In this document: one piece after another, positions 8,151 to 31,163 of the stretch | How positions within the stretch are numbered: the stretch's first letter is position 1 | Layout of the letters: the number at the start of each line of letters is the position of its first letter | Origin: an uncultured Clostridia bacterium | GTDB taxonomy: Bacteria; Bacillota; Clostridia; Christensenellales; CAG-917 | Direction of reading: 5' to 3' | Assembly (NCBI GenBank): GCA_947625225.1 | Contig: CANQNQ010000002.1 | Coordinates: forward strand, 62,001-126,000 | DNA length: 64,000 bases | Notes under the pieces: generated by a model | The model's database searches: none | What the model saw: the letters and a program-made list of their open reading frames with translations, nothing else | What the model was told of the DNA's origin: nothing | Made by a program: the position numbers and the translations under genes

Positions 8151-8167
8151 AACAAAAGCAAATATTG

Positions 8168-8203
8168 TCGGAGGACGCAAAGCGACGTCCTCCGATTTTT
8201 TTT
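8168..8203 (+). terminator. Terminator of GPH symporter gene
   Basis: A 10-bp perfect stem, TCGGAGGACG (8168-8177) with CGTCCTCCGA (8186-8195), followed by eight T. Confidence 0.93.
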
Positions 8204-8362
8204 GTGCGGAAGAGCGCGCTCCGCAAATGGGAAACGCATTTTAGGTTTTTGTTGTAGGCCGCGCGCGGCGTTTGAGCCGACAAATTTTGTAAAACCGCGC
8301 GGTTTTGTCACCCGAAGCGCACTTATTATATATAATATCAAAGAAATTTGATAAAATGATAC

Positions 8363-8391
8363 TTGACAAGCGTATGCTGTGTTGGTATAAT
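8363..8391 (+). promoter_or_regulatory. Full-consensus promoter for the SPFH/TIR pair
   Basis: TTGACA (8363-8368), exactly 17 bases, TATAAT (8386-8391). It has all twelve consensus bases, which suggests strong constitutive transcription. The remainder of the 308-base gap holds only the upstream terminator and AT-rich sequence. Confidence 0.88.
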
Positions 8392-8458: not shown

Positions 8459-9682
8459 ATGTGCAAAATGAAAGGTAACGTGACGATCGAGTTCAAGCCC
8501 GGCATCAACGACAAGGACTTGGAATTGGTTGCAAATGAACTCAAATCCATGGCGGCAGACATCGTAGCTGCGCCCAAAAAGTATTTCTGGGGCAGCCTCA
8601 AAAACCGCGAGTATGTCTATCAGGAGTTCGCTCAGGAATTGGTAGAGAGAGCCGACAAGCTGCTGGATTACTATGAGTATCGCAAGTCTCTTTCCGACGC
8701 CGACGTGGTGTGGAGAGTCAGGCTCGACGAGGAATTGCTTGGACTTTCCCTTGCTCCCGCAAGGCTGAGAAACAACAAATTCAAGGCAGTTTCTTTCCGC
8801 AAGATCAAGAAGATCAACAAGGCTTATGTCAACGTCATAGTGCCTTACACCAGAGAGGCCGTGTTCATCGACGACGGCAAGATCGACGAGCGCGCATGGG
8901 AATCGGGCAAGCATCGCATCAAGACAAAGACGATGTACGATCCGTTTGCACATTGCGAGCGCCTCACCAGAAGGGCAAGCAAGGATCTGCCTTCCGGTCA
9001 ACTTAAGTTCCGTCACTCCATGGATCTGTTCCTAATCAACAAGACCGTTGTTCAGGACATCAAGTGGGGCACCGAGGAAAATTTCTACATGATCGACCCC
9101 ATCCTCAAGATGCCCGTACCCTTCGGCGCGCACGGCGTTGCGAAATTCTCCATTTCCAACTCCAAGCTGTTTATGACCAGAGTGGTCGGCACCAAGGGCG
9201 AAAACAATATCGACGATATGACCAAATTCTTCCGCAGCAAGATAGTGATGCTGTTCAACTCTTTGCTGGGCAAGAAGCTGGTTGAAATGAATATGAGCAT
9301 ATTCCAGCTTGCGTCTCAACTGCACACCATGTCCGGCGTGTTGCTGACCGCAATGAAGAAGGAGTTTGCCGACTACGGCGTCAACCTCGAGGACTTCGCG
9401 ATAGAGCATATCGCAGTTGTCAACAACAAGGTCGAGGACGAAAACGGCGAGATAGTCGAGGAGAGGATCAATCCCGTGGATCTGTACGCAAATCACCAAG
9501 AGATACTGCGCATACAGATGCAGAACGGCGAGAACGAGGCTCTGCTCAAGTCGCTGGTCAGCAGGAATGCGGACGCCAACACCGACAGGATCGTCCGCCT
9601 CATCGAGGCAAAGGGCAAGGCTCTCAAGGACGCAAAGGACGAGAGATCCATCGTTATCAACAAAAACAAATCTGTGCTCTAA
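8459..9682 (+). CDS. SPFH (band 7)-domain protein paired with a TIR protein
   Basis: A 407-residue protein without a transmembrane helix or signal peptide. Residues about 185-330 resemble the SPFH domain of YdjI/virion-core-like proteins. The cues are the FINKT-WGT-like opening (LINKTVVQDIKWGT), a DP-F/Y beta segment, KFFRSKIVMLFNSLLGKKLVE, and the final strand AIEHIAV. The C-terminal 80 residues are charged and helical. SPFH proteins form membrane-associated oligomeric cages or scaffolds. The start is ATG 8459, with GGAGGG 8 bases upstream; the frame extends further up but would overlap the promoter. The zinc-ribbon/TIR gene follows 45 bases later with no terminator between, and strong terminators bracket the pair, so they form one unit. 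Function is unknown; a scaffold or sensor for the TIR protein is inference. Confidence 0.75.
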   Translation: MCKMKGNVTIEFKPGINDKDLELVANELKSMAADIVAAPKKYFWGSLKNREYVYQEFAQELVERADKLLDYYEYRKSLSDADVVWRVRLDEELLGLSLAPARLRNNKFKAVSFRKIKKINKAYVNVIVPYTREAVFIDDGKIDERAWESGKHRIKTKTMYDPFAHCERLTRRASKDLPSGQLKFRHSMDLFLINKTVVQDIKWGTEENFYMIDPILKMPVPFGAHGVAKFSISNSKLFMTRVVGTKGENNIDDMTKFFRSKIVMLFNSLLGKKLVEMNMSIFQLASQLHTMSGVLLTAMKKEFADYGVNLEDFAIEHIAVVNNKVEDENGEIVEERINPVDLYANHQEILRIQMQNGENEALLKSLVSRNADANTDRIVRLIEAKGKALKDAKDERSIVINKNKSVL

Positions 9683-9727
9683 GAAGGAGTACGGCGCTAT
9701 TTGAGCCCCTTCAGTTAGGATTGGACT

Positions 9728-12517
9728 ATGCAACAGAACAATATGTTCCGGGACGTCTGCCGCACTTGCGGTGCGGAGCTCGTGCTGGAGAGAAAAAATC
9801 TATATGTGTGTCCCTATTGCGGCAACCACTATTCTGTGCAGAAGAATGACCCTCCGTCTGCGACGTTGCGTCTTGCAAACGCGTGCAGGGAAAGCTTTGA
9901 CTTTGCAAAAGCCGAAAGTTTGTACCTGTCGCTTATCAGGAGCAATCCCGACGGCGATCTGACGGATGTGTACTGGGGCTTATTCCTTTTGGAACAAAGA
10001 TGCGTGTTTGAGGAGGACGAGCACGGCGATCGTTTCCCGTCCTTTTATGACATAGTGCCATACGACGTAGAGCAGTCCGAATATTTCAAGCTGGCTGTCA
10101 AGAGCGCGCAGGCCGCGGGCGACGCCGAAAAGGCGGAGACCTACCGCACGCTTGCAAAGCGCATGCAACAGCTCAAGCTGAAATACCAGACCATCAAGCG
10201 CACGACAAAGCCGTATGACATATTCATCTGCTTCAAAAAGAATGCTTCGCAAAACACGGTCACGGCAGATTACAAGTTGGCGTACGAGCTGTACAACCGT
10301 CTCAGCAGGGACTACAACGTGTTTTTCAGCGAGAGGTCGCTGAGCAACATCGTCGTCAGGGAGTACGAGCCAAACATCTATCACGCGCTGTACACCGCAA
10401 AGGTGATGCTTGTGCTTTGCTCAAGGCGCGAGTATCTTGACGCGCAATGGGTCAAAAACGAGTGGTCGCGCTTCAGGGAGATATCCAAGAACTCCGCGGA
10501 GCCAAAGGCGATGATCCCCATCTTTATAGACGGATTTATCCCCGACTATCTACCCGACGAACTGAGGAGCTGCCAGGGGGTGCGCGCAGACGTCAACCTG
10601 ATGGCAAACCTCACCGAGATGATCTCGCATATCGTCGCGCCAATAGACCGCAGCGCTATGCTGGAGGCGGAGCTGAGCAACATGACCGCCGATTTCAGCG
10701 CCAAGTTTGAGGAGCTGAACAACAAGGTCAGTCAGCAACAGCAACTTCAACAGCAGATCTTGAGCGCGAAGCAGGCAGCGCCCACCGTGACGGAAAGCGT
10801 GACCGTGCCCGTAAGCGGCATACCGCGTATGCCCGTCGCTCAAGCGACGCCCGCGCCGGTGGCGCAAGCGGCTCCGCAGGTGGTGTATCAGACAATGCCC
10901 GGCATGGATATGCTGGTTGGCAACACCAGACAGCTTGCGGACAGCTTCTACGAAGGGCGCAAATATAAGGCGGCGAAGGACAAATATCTCGAATGCCTCA
11001 ACGTAAACGCGGGCGACTATCGCAGCAGATATATGTGCGAGCTGTGCGACGTCAACATATCGCTTGACAACGACTCGCTTGCAGGACTTGCGGACGCCAC
11101 CAAACGCTATATCGGCAGCTGGACTTTTGACAAGACGGCGGACAAGTACAACATGATCCCGCAGAGCCTATCCCTCGGCTCTGTGCTGAATCCCAAGAGC
11201 TCTGTCCCCGCCGCGCTCAAACAGTACAGAAGCGGCGGCAAGTACGCCTCCGGCAGCATAGGCTACCATAAGGGCGAGCAGGCGTTTGCCCCCGGCGATA
11301 TAAGCGCGACGAGCGCCGCCTACGCAGCGGATGCAAAATTGCCCGCAATACCCAACCTGCCGCTGGCAGTTGCGATAGAGACGTTGGGCTGCTATCAGAA
11401 GAAGTACCTCAACAAGCAGCGCGACGAATTGCTGGATTACTACAACGCGGTAGACAACCTTGGCTACGACAGCGTGCAGAGCGGCAACGCCAAATTCCGC
11501 AACTACATCAACAGCGTATGGAGCCAGCTGGATATGTCCATGAATTTGCTGGACTATCTGATGAGCGGCGCCTACGTCAAGAAAAATATCAAGGATTGCA
11601 ACAAACTTATCGCAACGCAACTGTCCAACACGCGCGAACTTGCAAAGTATTGCGAGGACAGCTATACCGTCAGCGTCGCCGACAGCAGCAGACCCACCGC
11701 ATACGAGACCTTCGAGATGTCCGTATTCGACAGGGAGAGGCTGACCTCCGCGCGCAGACGGCTTAAGGAGTACGCCGGCTATGTCATAGCTCGCGAAAAC
11801 CTCAAGCACAAGCGTTATCTTGAGGCGTTCAAGCAGCTGAAGGACAACACCGTGCTCAACTCCAAGGCGTTATTCAAAAAGTGCAGCAAGCTCACGCAGG
11901 TAGAGCGCTACAACAACGCGATCAATCTGTACAAAAACAAGCAATACGCCGAGGCAAAGGAGGAGCTTGAGGACCTCGCGGGTTACCGCAACGCCGACAA
12001 GTACCTCGCCAGCGTGGACAGCAAGTTTATGCAGGAGGACTACCGCGACGCGCAGCAGAAGATAGAGGACAAGGACTACGAGGGCGCGAAGGAGCTGTTT
12101 GTCAAGCTGTCTATGTACAGCGAGGAGTACACCGTCCCCGCAGGCGGCTACAAGGATTCCGCCGAGATGGTGGAGGAGTGCGACAAGCAGATCGCAAAGC
12201 GTTCTGCCAAGCAGGGCAAGGTAGCCTCCACGGTGATCATGGACCTCACGCTTGCGCTGGTGATGATCGCGGCGATCGTGGGCGCGCTGTTGCCCGTGCA
12301 GGTCAGCTCCGCGCTGAGCGGACTGATGGTGCTGGTGGTGCTTGTGCCCATTGTGGTGTTGACCATCGCCACGTTGTGCAGCCTCAAACGCTTCAGGTAT
12401 CCCGCGCTGACGGTTGTGCTGCTGGTGCTGGCGGTCATAGCGATGGCGCTGATGATGCTGTCGGCAACATTTGCGGCAGATATCGGCTTTGTGGGACTGA
12501 GCGATATGCTTGCATAA
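9728..12517 (+). CDS. Zinc-ribbon, TIR-domain, TPR-like, C-terminally membrane-anchored protein
   Basis: A 929-residue multidomain protein. A zinc ribbon uses C11, C14, C28 and C31. A helical segment (45-155) leads to a TIR domain at about 162-300: strand A is YDIFICFK, the BB-loop region is NVFFSERSL, and YTAKVMLVLCSRREYLDAQW is followed by E245. By alignment with the W-x3-E pattern of NAD-cleaving TIR domains, E245 is the candidate catalytic glutamate. A short Gln-rich coiled coil (310-350) and Pro/Ala linker (352-385) follow, then TPR-like helical repeats (about 400-440 and 735-830) and three or four hydrophobic helices in the last 105 residues. TIR domains in bacteria make NAD-derived signals or deplete NAD. 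The SPFH partner lies directly upstream. Activity, trigger and a role in defence are inference. Confidence 0.85.
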   Translation: MQQNNMFRDVCRTCGAELVLERKNLYVCPYCGNHYSVQKNDPPSATLRLANACRESFDFAKAESLYLSLIRSNPDGDLTDVYWGLFLLEQRCVFEEDEHGDRFPSFYDIVPYDVEQSEYFKLAVKSAQAAGDAEKAETYRTLAKRMQQLKLKYQTIKRTTKPYDIFICFKKNASQNTVTADYKLAYELYNRLSRDYNVFFSERSLSNIVVREYEPNIYHALYTAKVMLVLCSRREYLDAQWVKNEWSRFREISKNSAEPKAMIPIFIDGFIPDYLPDELRSCQGVRADVNLMANLTEMISHIVAPIDRSAMLEAELSNMTADFSAKFEELNNKVSQQQQLQQQILSAKQAAPTVTESVTVPVSGIPRMPVAQATPAPVAQAAPQVVYQTMPGMDMLVGNTRQLADSFYEGRKYKAAKDKYLECLNVNAGDYRSRYMCELCDVNISLDNDSLAGLADATKRYIGSWTFDKTADKYNMIPQSLSLGSVLNPKSSVPAALKQYRSGGKYASGSIGYHKGEQAFAPGDISATSAAYAADAKLPAIPNLPLAVAIETLGCYQKKYLNKQRDELLDYYNAVDNLGYDSVQSGNAKFRNYINSVWSQLDMSMNLLDYLMSGAYVKKNIKDCNKLIATQLSNTRELAKYCEDSYTVSVADSSRPTAYETFEMSVFDRERLTSARRRLKEYAGYVIARENLKHKRYLEAFKQLKDNTVLNSKALFKKCSKLTQVERYNNAINLYKNKQYAEAKEELEDLAGYRNADKYLASVDSKFMQEDYRDAQQKIEDKDYEGAKELFVKLSMYSEEYTVPAGGYKDSAEMVEECDKQIAKRSAKQGKVASTVIMDLTLALVMIAAIVGALLPVQVSSALSGLMVLVVLVPIVVLTIATLCSLKRFRYPALTVVLLVLAVIAMALMMLSATFAADIGFVGLSDMLA

Positions 12518-12533
12518 AAACGATAAACTACGG

Positions 12534-12561
12534 CGTCCGCAGTGAAAACTGCGGACGTTTT
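12534..12561 (+). terminator. Terminator of the SPFH/TIR unit
   Basis: A 9-bp stem CGTCCGCAG/CTGCGGACG with a TGAAAA loop and TTTTC tail, 17 bases after the TIR gene stop. Confidence 0.85.
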
Positions 12562-12588
12562 CTTATTATTGGAAATCATAAACTAGTC

Positions 12589-12719
12589 CAAGCGAGGCGT
12601 GAATAGCTTAGGCGTTGAGGATTATCCACCAACTAAGCTAAGTGAGGCGAGAAGAATTTAGGCATTGAGAGATAATCGACTGAACCGAGCGAGGCGGAAA
12701 TAGCTTGGGAGCTTAGAAA
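12589..12719 (+). repeat. Degenerate tandem repeat, three units of about 45-50 bases
   Basis: Three successive units each contain (A)AGYGAGGCG, a few bases, AATAGCTT/AATTTAGG, then GG-TTGAG/GAGCTTAG. They begin near 12589, 12637 and 12685. The sequence is non-coding and sits between two facing terminators. Unit differences are too many for a CRISPR array, and no spacers are present. Confidence 0.55.
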
Positions 12720-20974: not shown

Positions 20975-21014
20975 ATAATAGAATAATGCTAAAATGTCCG
21001 TAAGGAGTCCAAAG

Positions 21015-23102
21015 ATGGCAAAGCTGCTGAAATGCTCTAAATGCAACAAAATCATTTATGTTGACGCTGCGCGCAAGATAATCGAATGCCCCGATTGCGG
21101 CACGCAATATCGCAACACCTTTTACGTCGACCCGATGGCGGCGCGCGAGGAGAAGGAGGGCATACCCACTTTCGATATGTCGCCGGATCTTGTGCCCGTG
21201 TTTATGAAGGCGAAAGAGGGCGATCTCGAGTCCATAAAGCAGATGGCGTTTTGCTACAGCACCGGGCAGGGCGCGCCACTCAACAGGGAAAAGGCGGTGG
21301 AGTACTTCACGGAAGCCGCGGAGCAGGGCGACAAGGAGTCGCAATATCAGCTTGCAAATCATTATTCAACGGGACTCGGCGTAAAGCGTTCGGACGAGCT
21401 TGCGGCAAAATACTATATCATGGCGGCTAAGAAGTGCCATGTGGATTCGATGTACTATGCGGGCTGGCATTACTACCTCGGCAAGGGCGTCAAGAAGGAC
21501 GAGGTAGAGGCGGCAAAGTATTTCAGAGCAGCCGCAAAGAGAGATCACGACAAGGCGCAGTGCATGCTGGGCGTGTGCTACGCAAACGGCGTGGGATTTG
21601 AAGCCAACGCCAAAAAGGCGGCGGAATGGTTTGGAAAATCCGCCGAACAGGGCTATGCGCGCGCGCAATACAACTATGGCGTGTGCTTCGACAGAGGAGA
21701 GGGCGTAAAGCAGAGTTACTCAACTGCCGCAAAGTGGTTTTTCAAGGCGGCGGAGCAGGGTGACGTGGACGCGCAATACGATCTCGCGCTGATGTATCTT
21801 GATGGGCACGGCGTAAAGAAAAACGCGCAAAAGAGCCTTATGTGGTTCAAAAAAGCCGCCGAACAGGGCGACGTGGACGCACAATACAACGCGGGCATAA
21901 TGTATGACGAAGGGCTTGGCGAGAAGACCAGCTATATAAAGGCTGCCAAGCTGTATAAACAGGCGGCGGAGCAGGATGACAGAGACGCAATGTTCAATTC
22001 CGCCGTGTGCTACCACCTCGGACAGGGCGTAAAGAAGGACTATGCCGAGGCGACAAAGCGCTATATCAAGGCGGCGGTCAAGGGCGACGTGGACGCAATG
22101 TTCAACCTCGGCACCATCTACCGCACCCGCGACGACGGCAACGCGCGCAATATAGAGGCGGTCAAATGGTATCGCGCCGCCGCGGAGCAGGGCGACAGGG
22201 ACGCGCAATACAACCTTGCCGTGTGCTATCACAAGGGCGAGGGCGTCAACCAAAACTACGACGAGGCATTCAGATGGTATCGTACTGCGGCAGACAACGG
22301 TTGCACCGCCGCATACTTCAACCTCGGCCAATGCTACTTTGAGGGCATGGGCGTGCCCAAAGATTACACCGAGGCGTTCAAGTGTTTCCGCGACGCTACC
22401 GACGCAGAGGAATCAGACAGCGACGCCGCGCTGATGCTTGGCTACTGCTACCTGTCCGGGCTTGGCGTGGATTCGGATTTTGATAAGGCAATGGAGCTGT
22501 TCAAGCGCTCCGCCGATCTGGGCAATAAGTTTGCAAAACGCAACCTGGGTGCGCTTTTGGGCAGCAGACGTTACAATACCGTGGATCCGCTGGAAGCAGT
22601 CAAGGGCTATAAGGAAGCGGCGGCAGAGGGCGACATCGACGCGCAATTCAACCTGGGCGTCTACTACGACAACGGCTTCGGCGTGCCGCAGAATTATGCC
22701 GAGGCTATAAAGTGGTACAAGAGGGCGGCGGATCAAGGCAACGAGCTTGCGCAATACAATCTCGCGGTCATGTACATCCGCGGCATAGGCGTTGAACAGA
22801 GCTACGAGGAGGGCGCCAAATTGCTTGAAAAGGCGGCAAACAAGGGACTGTCCACCGCACAGCTCTACCTCGGTCATTGCTATTTGCTGGGCAAGGGCGT
22901 GGAACAGAACCTGTCCATGGCGAGCCACCTGTACAGCCTCGCGGCAGAACAGATGAACATCGGCGACGAGTTCGACTTTGACTTCCGCTTCAGCAGCGCC
23001 ACCATCCGCGTGTTCCGCATCAACAACGCAAAGGACGTGGTGACGGACATCCGCGAGAGGAGAGAGCATATCCGCGTGGAACGCCGCGGCTTTGCAAAAT
23101 GA
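21015..23102 (+). CDS. Zinc-ribbon protein with sixteen Sel1-like repeats
   Basis: A 695-residue protein, apparently cytosolic (no signal peptide or helix). A zinc ribbon with C7, C10, C25 and C28 is followed by a short linker and about sixteen consecutive 36-residue Sel1 repeats from about residue 70 to 655. Each has the form A-x2-NLGVCYxxGxGVxxDYxEAxKWYxKAAEQGD. Sel1 repeats form alpha-solenoids that scaffold protein complexes; in bacteria they are often stress-linked or exported effectors. The first 40 residues align without gaps with those of the ABC ATPase at 53379. ATG 21015 is chosen because AAGGAG lies 8 bases before it; the frame begins 7 codons earlier. A single-gene unit; partners are unknown. 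Confidence 0.9.
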   Translation: MAKLLKCSKCNKIIYVDAARKIIECPDCGTQYRNTFYVDPMAAREEKEGIPTFDMSPDLVPVFMKAKEGDLESIKQMAFCYSTGQGAPLNREKAVEYFTEAAEQGDKESQYQLANHYSTGLGVKRSDELAAKYYIMAAKKCHVDSMYYAGWHYYLGKGVKKDEVEAAKYFRAAAKRDHDKAQCMLGVCYANGVGFEANAKKAAEWFGKSAEQGYARAQYNYGVCFDRGEGVKQSYSTAAKWFFKAAEQGDVDAQYDLALMYLDGHGVKKNAQKSLMWFKKAAEQGDVDAQYNAGIMYDEGLGEKTSYIKAAKLYKQAAEQDDRDAMFNSAVCYHLGQGVKKDYAEATKRYIKAAVKGDVDAMFNLGTIYRTRDDGNARNIEAVKWYRAAAEQGDRDAQYNLAVCYHKGEGVNQNYDEAFRWYRTAADNGCTAAYFNLGQCYFEGMGVPKDYTEAFKCFRDATDAEESDSDAALMLGYCYLSGLGVDSDFDKAMELFKRSADLGNKFAKRNLGALLGSRRYNTVDPLEAVKGYKEAAAEGDIDAQFNLGVYYDNGFGVPQNYAEAIKWYKRAADQGNELAQYNLAVMYIRGIGVEQSYEEGAKLLEKAANKGLSTAQLYLGHCYLLGKGVEQNLSMASHLYSLAAEQMNIGDEFDFDFRFSSATIRVFRINNAKDVVTDIRERREHIRVERRGFAK

Positions 23103-31134: not shown

Positions 31135-31163
31135 TTGACACGCCAATTTGAATTAAGTATAAT
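31135..31163 (+). promoter_or_regulatory. Full-consensus promoter for xpt and the nucleoside transporter
   Basis: TTGACA (31135-31140), 17 bases, TATAAT (31158-31163). The leader to the xpt ATG is about 85 bases. I looked for a purine riboswitch core there and did not find one. Confidence 0.85.

What the first reader, a model, noticed from the sequence alone, without database searches (positions are those of the whole stretch)
8459..12517. SPFH protein plus zinc-ribbon/TIR/TPR-like/membrane protein as an isolated two-gene system
The sequence shows a full-consensus promoter, two genes 45 bases apart and strong terminators on both sides, so this is one self-contained unit. The second protein joins a four-cysteine zinc ribbon, a TIR domain with the candidate catalytic E245, a coiled coil, TPR-like helices and a C-terminal membrane bundle. 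The first is an SPFH (YdjI-like) protein. From family knowledge, TIR enzymes cleave NAD or make NAD-derived signals in defence, and SPFH proteins form membrane-bound cages. That the SPFH partner holds or senses for a membrane-tethered TIR effector (immunity or stress) is inference. I know of no named system with this composition.
Basis: partly seen in the sequence, partly recalled or inferred. Interest (0 to 1): 0.78.

Follow-up and report, generated by a model that had tools for sequence, protein, structure and literature searches.

The report
Membrane scaffold paired with TIR enzyme
A gut bacterium carries two neighbouring genes, a membrane-scaffold (SPFH) protein and a TIR protein that keeps the NAD-cutting active-site residue; the pairing recurs in many gut bacteria and looks like a membrane-damage alarm or immune device that has no name yet.

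Summary
SPFH (8459-9682, Pfam Band_7_1, E 4e-22) and a Zn-ribbon/TIR/TPR-like/membrane protein (9728-12517, TIR_2, E 3e-9) form a two-gene unit with a 12/12 consensus promoter and flanking terminators. E245 aligns with the catalytic Glu of plant TIR enzymes and is invariant in 25/25 relatives collected without motif bias. The pairing is not chance: 27 of 35 TIR loci in the same order have an SPFH gene within 5 kb, always on the same strand, as do 42/80 loci across gut Clostridia (42/42 same strand). Two sister species share the exact two-gene order and a perfect promoter; in at least seven the insertion site is empty, so the pair is accessory. In a subset of relatives the operon also holds an ESCRT-III-like protein, an MIT-AAA (Vps4-like) ATPase, a Zn-ribbon trypsin-like protease and sometimes BrxL. 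Against a plain defence reading: neighbours are not enriched in defence genes, and plasmids and phages almost lack the TIR. Best reading: a TIR-armed relative of the YdjI/PspA membrane-surveillance module, in which a membrane-bound SPFH assembly clusters and triggers a TIR NADase. Activity, trigger and outcome are inferred. No published SPFH-TIR system was found in the open library.

The parts
8167..8196 (+). Terminator-like hairpin plus T run after the upstream MFS transporter gene
8363..8391 (+). Full-consensus promoter TTGACA-N17-TATAAT with TG extension
   Evidence: 12/12; sister pairs in L062 and L063 carry an identical 29-nt perfect-consensus promoter upstream of SPFH
8459..9682 (+). SPFH gene, 407 aa, soluble (no membrane-spanning stretch), N-terminal extension of about 110 aa, no C-terminal zinc ribbons
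8798..9424 (+). SPFH (Band_7_1, YdjI-type) domain, residues 114-322
   Evidence: PF13421 E 4.1e-22; profile of the family matches stomatin/prohibitin structures
9728..12517 (+). Zn-ribbon/TIR/coiled-coil/TPR-like/membrane gene, 929 aa
9758..9820 (+). Zinc ribbon, Cys 11, 14, 28, 31
   Evidence: invariant in 25/25; 111 of 113 with all four Cys, 2 with none
10205..10636 (+). TIR domain, residues 160-303
   Evidence: TIR_2 E 2.8e-9; fold match to SARM1 TIR, prob 1.00
10460..10462 (+). Codon of E245 in WVKNEW
   Evidence: aligned with the Glu of WCLEEL in ROQ1 and WCLDEL in RUN1; invariant 25/25
10649..10774 (+). Coiled coil, residues 308-349
   Evidence: AF2 helix
10898..12199 (+). Helical, partly TPR-like region (residues 391-824) with low-confidence stretches
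   Evidence: AF2 model and TPR-type fold matches
12224..12472 (+). Hydrophobic C-terminus, about three membrane-spanning stretches (residues 833-915)
   Evidence: hydropathy
12532..12559 (+). Terminator-like hairpin after the TIR gene

Best explanation
The pair is a TIR-armed relative of the YdjI/PspA-type membrane-surveillance module. The soluble SPFH protein assembles into an oligomer at the cytoplasmic face of the membrane, held there by its partner's zinc ribbon and C-terminal membrane helices, as B. subtilis YdjI depends on membrane partners of which YdjG is a zinc-ribbon protein. The oligomer clusters the partner's TIR domains. On membrane damage or an envelope-directed attack, phage included, the clustered TIRs become an active NAD+-cleaving enzyme, which stops growth or sends a nucleotide signal. 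Shown: domains, invariant catalytic Glu and Zn ligands, conserved same-strand pairing, accessory insertion, and ESCRT-III-like/Vps4-like genes in related operons. Inferred: SPFH-TIR contact, clustering, trigger, NADase activity, outcome.
For: Conserved pairing: 27/35 order regions, all same strand; 42/80 loci across Clostridia, 42/42 same strand; pairing present in most large clades of the TIR tree; SPFH and TIR distances correlate, r 0.84, 0/2000 permutations as high. E245 and Zn Cys invariant; aligned with plant TIR catalytic Glu. TIR fold. Related operons hold an ESCRT-III-superfamily protein (15 best PDB fold matches all ESCRT-III/CdvB/Vipp1) and an MIT-AAA ATPase (Pfam MIT 1e-6 in one of nine members); genomes with the Snf7-like gene have the TIR more often, 18/31 against 5.5 expected, p 8e-8. 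YdjI needs membrane partners YdjG/H to bring PspA to the membrane (PMC8581546); YdjG carries zinc ribbons and a TM segment and the SPFH partner has a C-terminal ZnR (PMC11237479).
Against: The window's genome has neither PspA nor the Snf7-like gene, so the link to membrane remodelling is by family, not by this locus. The nearest TIR relatives (L064/L103, L105, L107, L108, L113) have no SPFH within several kb, so SPFH is not always needed in cis. No activity or complex was measured. Single-match significance of the ESCRT-III fold hit is weak (Foldseek E 0.057, model pLDDT 64). The distance correlation does not control for shared descent.
Confidence: 0.5

Rival explanations
1. A dedicated anti-phage abortive-infection pair: the TPR-like region or the SPFH recognises a phage component directly, and the TIR depletes NAD+; membrane stress as such is not the trigger.
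For: Accessory presence: in at least seven sister species the MFS and ATPase genes are adjacent with 5-473 bp between them, where the window has the pair. Patchy distribution (TIR in 53/297 genomes of the order). Tandem TIR arrays in some relatives (L180, L149). TIR with catalytic Glu. BrxL-like and Zn-ribbon trypsin-like protease genes in some related operons. Divergent XRE-type regulator genes beside both sister pairs.
Against: No enrichment of PADLOC families in close neighbours against controls; no match in 72,556 plasmids or 50,697 phage records and two in 2.9 million viral contigs; no meaningful PADLOC hit for either protein.
Confidence: 0.28
2. A non-lethal envelope-stress response: the TIR makes an NAD-derived signal or modestly tunes NAD, and the pair protects rather than kills.
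For: YdjI-type SPFH and, in relatives, ESCRT-III-like plus MIT-AAA genes point to membrane maintenance; mostly chromosomal; perfect housekeeping-type promoter.
Against: Accessory and often absent in sister species, unlike a core stress response; characterised bacterial TIR enzymes mostly act in defence (family knowledge; papers listed).
Confidence: 0.15
3. The TIR is a non-enzymatic adaptor that only assembles the complex.
For: TIR domains can serve as scaffolds (family knowledge).
Against: E245 and the W-x-x-N-E-W-x-R motif are invariant in all 25 unbiased relatives, and no member in 113 has lost the Glu (partly motif-selected).
Confidence: 0.05
4. The two genes are unrelated neighbours.
For: Some close TIR relatives stand alone.
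Against: Same-strand adjacency across many genera (p 2.7e-39 under an assumed 2% chance rate, strand p 2e-13).
Confidence: 0.02

Closest known systems
PspA-YdjGHI module of Bacillus subtilis (YdjI SPFH, YdjG zinc-ribbon membrane protein, PspA ESCRT-III)
   Same: YdjI-type SPFH domain without own membrane anchor; partner with N-terminal zinc ribbon and membrane helices; in related loci an ESCRT-III-superfamily protein in the operon
   Different: A TIR enzyme and TPR-like region are built into the partner; no PspA in the operon or genome; no YdjH gene beside it; SPFH here lacks the C-terminal zinc ribbons
TIR NADase immune proteins (Thoeris ThsB, SPARTA TIR-APAZ, TIR-STING, plant TIR-NLR, SARM1)
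   Same: TIR fold and WxxxE catalytic Glu
   Different: None of these has an SPFH partner (family knowledge); no SLOG, APAZ, STING or NB-ARC domain here; Thoeris-type match only 17.6 bits against a cut-off of 220
Archaeal ESCRT systems with SPFH genes (Meth_adaptin loci, PMC10936438)
   Same: SPFH, ESCRT-III and MIT-AAA genes together, seen here in a subset of related loci
   Different: Bacterial; TIR and zinc-ribbon protease effectors; the window locus itself has no ESCRT-III or Vps4-like gene

Membership tests
TIR domain enzyme | TIR fold | tested here: met
   TIR_2 above cut-off; Foldseek match to SARM1, SPARTA
TIR domain enzyme | Catalytic Glu in the WxxxE position | tested here: met
   E245 aligned with ROQ1/RUN1 Glu, invariant 25/25
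TIR domain enzyme | NAD+ cleavage | not testable with these tools
   needs an assay
YdjI-type SPFH (PF13421) | Band_7_1 domain | tested here: met
   79 bits, cut-off 24
YdjI-type SPFH (PF13421) | C-terminal zinc ribbon as in YdjI | tested here: not met
   absent in the window and two sisters, present in most other family members
PspA-YdjGHI system | PspA gene in operon or genome | tested here: not met
   no PF04012 match in the genome while control genomes ring
PspA-YdjGHI system | Membrane partner with zinc ribbon, homologous to YdjG | tested here: inconclusive
   TIR protein has zinc ribbon and hydrophobic C-terminus; homology to YdjG not shown
Thoeris | ThsA-type effector gene beside the TIR gene | tested here: not met
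   neighbours are SPFH and a P-type ATPase
Thoeris | Match to a Thoeris TIR model | tested here: not met
   ThcB4 17.6 bits, cut-off 220; no PADLOC Thoeris hit
ESCRT system | ESCRT-III gene with MIT-AAA gene | tested here: not met
   Snf7-like gene absent from the window genome; both present in related loci
Known defence system (PADLOC) | Family hit or defence-island context | tested here: not met

The most novel reading that the evidence does not exclude
Bacteria have a membrane immunity built on SPFH and ESCRT machinery: an SPFH cage, with ESCRT-III and a Vps4-like ATPase in its fuller forms, recruits interchangeable zinc-ribbon effectors (TIR NADase, trypsin-like protease) to damaged membrane, and the window pair is its minimal form.
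Probability: 0.3. Interest if true: 0.88.

Novelty: new variant of a known kind. Interest (0 to 1): 0.64.

Why it matters
It ties a TIR NADase to membrane-organising SPFH proteins, a pairing for which no paper turned up in the library searched, in a family found in hundreds of gut Clostridia genomes. In some relatives it also brings ESCRT-III-like and Vps4-like genes into one bacterial operon with the TIR. If the mechanism holds, it gives a simple two-gene system in which to ask how membrane damage is turned into NAD+ cleavage.

Tried and rejected
Defence-island enrichment: PADLOC on 78 close neighbours gave no more hits than 76 controls. Mobile-element carriage: no plasmid or phage match, two viral contigs. 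Thoeris membership: far below cut-off. PspA partner in trans: none in the genome. Sequence-only proof of ESCRT-III for the related c4 protein: Pfam Snf7 E 0.048 and no PDB sequence match; only the fold comparison supported it. MIT by PDB sequence search: no MIT chain found; Pfam MIT hit one of nine members at 1e-6. Plain phmmer of the full TIR protein against PDB gave nothing useful. An operator-like palindrome TATCAAAGAAATTTGATA at 8336-8353 was seen, but such palindromes arise in about 12% of shuffles, so it is not claimed. RNA families and tRNAs: none in the window. GC content of the pair does not stand out.
Full report
What is there. The first, 407 aa from ATG 8459, matches Pfam Band_7_1 (PF13421) well above cut-off at residues 114-322; the second, 929 aa from ATG 9728, matches TIR_2 above cut-off. 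The intergenic gap is 45 nt. A perfect TTGACA-N17-TATAAT promoter with a TG extension lies at 8363-8391; only two such sites occur in 64 kb, with 0.02 expected. Terminator-like hairpins bound the unit. The SPFH protein has no membrane-spanning stretch; the TIR protein has about three hydrophobic stretches at its C-terminus.

The TIR domain. An AF2 model from 22 family members is confident over the TIR region and its fold matches SARM1, TIR-STING and SPARTA TIR domains with probability 1.00. A TIR-only profile matches ROQ1, RUN1 and AT1G72930; in those alignments E245 in WVKNEW falls on the Glu of WCLEEL/WCLDEL, which in ROQ1 counts to residue 86, the known catalytic Glu (the role of that residue is family knowledge). 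E245 and the four zinc-ribbon cysteines are invariant in 25 relatives that were found by whole-protein search. The Glu is also kept in all of a larger set of 113, but part of that set was fetched with a motif containing the Glu, so the first number is the fair one.

The pairing is real. The TIR gene is single-copy in this genome. Among 297 genomes of the order, 53 have a relative. In 35 regions fetched for the TIR, 27 have an SPFH gene within 5 kb on the same strand (one of these, in L095, is a weak match that may be only zinc ribbons). In 80 loci from named genomes (Christensenellaceae, Lachnospiraceae, Oscillospiraceae, Ruminococcus, a few Lentisphaerae, Tannerella and Acholeplasmatales MAGs) 42 have an SPFH gene, 42 of 42 on the same strand; three of these repeat earlier loci. 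With truncated loci set aside, 65 are paired and 18 stand alone with 5 kb or more of flank. On the TIR tree, pairing is spread through most clades with many changes, so the link is old or repeatedly made and often lost. SPFH and TIR distances correlate at r 0.84, although shared descent is not removed. The closest TIR relatives outside the sister pairs (45-52% identity) mostly stand alone.

The sister species. Two genomes of the same genus have the same SPFH-then-TIR order (L062, L063). Both carry an identical 29-nt perfect-consensus promoter and a divergent small XRE-type regulator gene, which the window lacks. In at least seven sister species the flanking MFS and P-type ATPase genes are direct neighbours with 5 to 473 bp between them, where the window holds the pair. 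In L062 the pair sits beside the same MFS gene; in L063's genome that junction is empty and the pair is elsewhere. The unit is therefore accessory.

The wider family. In other genera the operon is longer. About a dozen loci hold a 190-200 aa protein, c4. Its AF2 model (mean pLDDT 64) has the ESCRT-III helix order, and its 15 best PDB fold matches are all ESCRT-III, CdvB or Vipp1; no single E-value is below 0.05, so this rests on the consistency of the list. [quoted passage not shown] Genomes with c4 have the TIR more often than chance, 18 of 31. Six loci encode a zinc ribbon fused to a trypsin-like protease with conserved His, Asp and Ser, and three a BrxL-like protein. The zinc ribbon at the front of both TIR and protease proteins looks like a shared docking module with exchangeable effectors (inference). 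The window's own genome has neither PspA nor the Snf7-like gene, but it has a second SPFH locus without TIR (L081), which carries a membrane protein and a Zn-ribbon/TPR-like protein.

Mechanism. B. subtilis YdjI, the SPFH prototype, has no anchor of its own and needs the membrane proteins YdjG and YdjH to bring the ESCRT-III protein PspA to the membrane (PMC8581546); YdjG has zinc ribbons and a TM segment (PMC11237479). In the window the soluble SPFH and the zinc-ribbon, membrane-tailed partner repeat that layout, with a TIR domain added. TIR enzymes are switched on by clustering (family knowledge) and a bacterial SPFH protein forms a closed 24-mer on the membrane (cited in PMC10936438), so SPFH-driven clustering of TIR domains at the membrane is the simplest joint reading. 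What triggers it, membrane damage or a phage component, and what follows, arrest, death or a signal, cannot be told from sequence.

Defence or stress. For defence: the catalytic TIR, accessory insertion, patchy distribution, tandem TIR arrays, BrxL in some operons. Against: no meaningful PADLOC match, no excess of defence genes nearby, almost no plasmid or phage copies. The membrane-surveillance reading explains the SPFH and ESCRT-like partners better. The two are not exclusive.

Literature. Searches for SPFH or band-7 with TIR, ESCRT and defence terms found no report of this pairing. The band-7/'CesT-Tir' association in PMC11237479 concerns an unrelated chaperone domain. Most subscription papers are outside the library, so absence is not proof. 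Some gut Clostridia TIR domains have measured NADase activity (PMC9092222); whether any belongs to this family could not be checked here.

Noticed in passing
L062:6694-6906 and L063:11866-12090: Small divergent XRE-type HTH genes beside both sister SPFH-TIR pairs, sharing an intergenic region with an identical 29-nt perfect promoter; the window pair has no such regulator.
   Followed up: partly
L065, L066, L067, L068, L069, L075, L078, L084, L087, L092, L098: Bacterial operons with an ESCRT-III-like protein, most also with an MIT-AAA (Vps4-like) ATPase, beside SPFH and/or TIR genes; elsewhere in the order (e.g. G173, G196, G241, G123) the Snf7-like gene sits 1-3 kb from an SPFH gene.
   Followed up: partly
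L067:7970-8728, L075:5816-6625, L078:2896-3681, L087:262-1035, L092:5515-6285, L098:10502-11272: Zinc ribbon fused to a trypsin-like serine protease with conserved His/Asp/Ser, encoded beside the TIR genes: a second effector with the same N-terminal module.
   Followed up: partly
L081:9243-13683 (own genome, another contig): Second YdjI-like SPFH locus without TIR: SPFH with C-terminal zinc ribbons, multi-TM protein, Zn-ribbon/TPR-like protein, coiled-coil membrane protein.
   Followed up: partly
window 12572-12716: Three imperfect 48-nt direct repeats just downstream of the pair's terminator, not seen elsewhere in the window nor beside the sister pairs.
   Followed up: partly
window 20994-23102: Protein with an N-terminal zinc ribbon followed by 15 Sel1 repeats, an architecture that recalls the Zn-ribbon/TPR proteins of the SPFH loci.
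   Followed up: no
L180, L149, L131, L156: Tandem arrays of four to five Zn-ribbon/TIR genes in Lachnospiraceae, Clostridiales and Ruminococcus MAGs.
   Followed up: no
window 31135-31163: The only other perfect TTGACA-N17-TATAAT site in the window.
   Followed up: no
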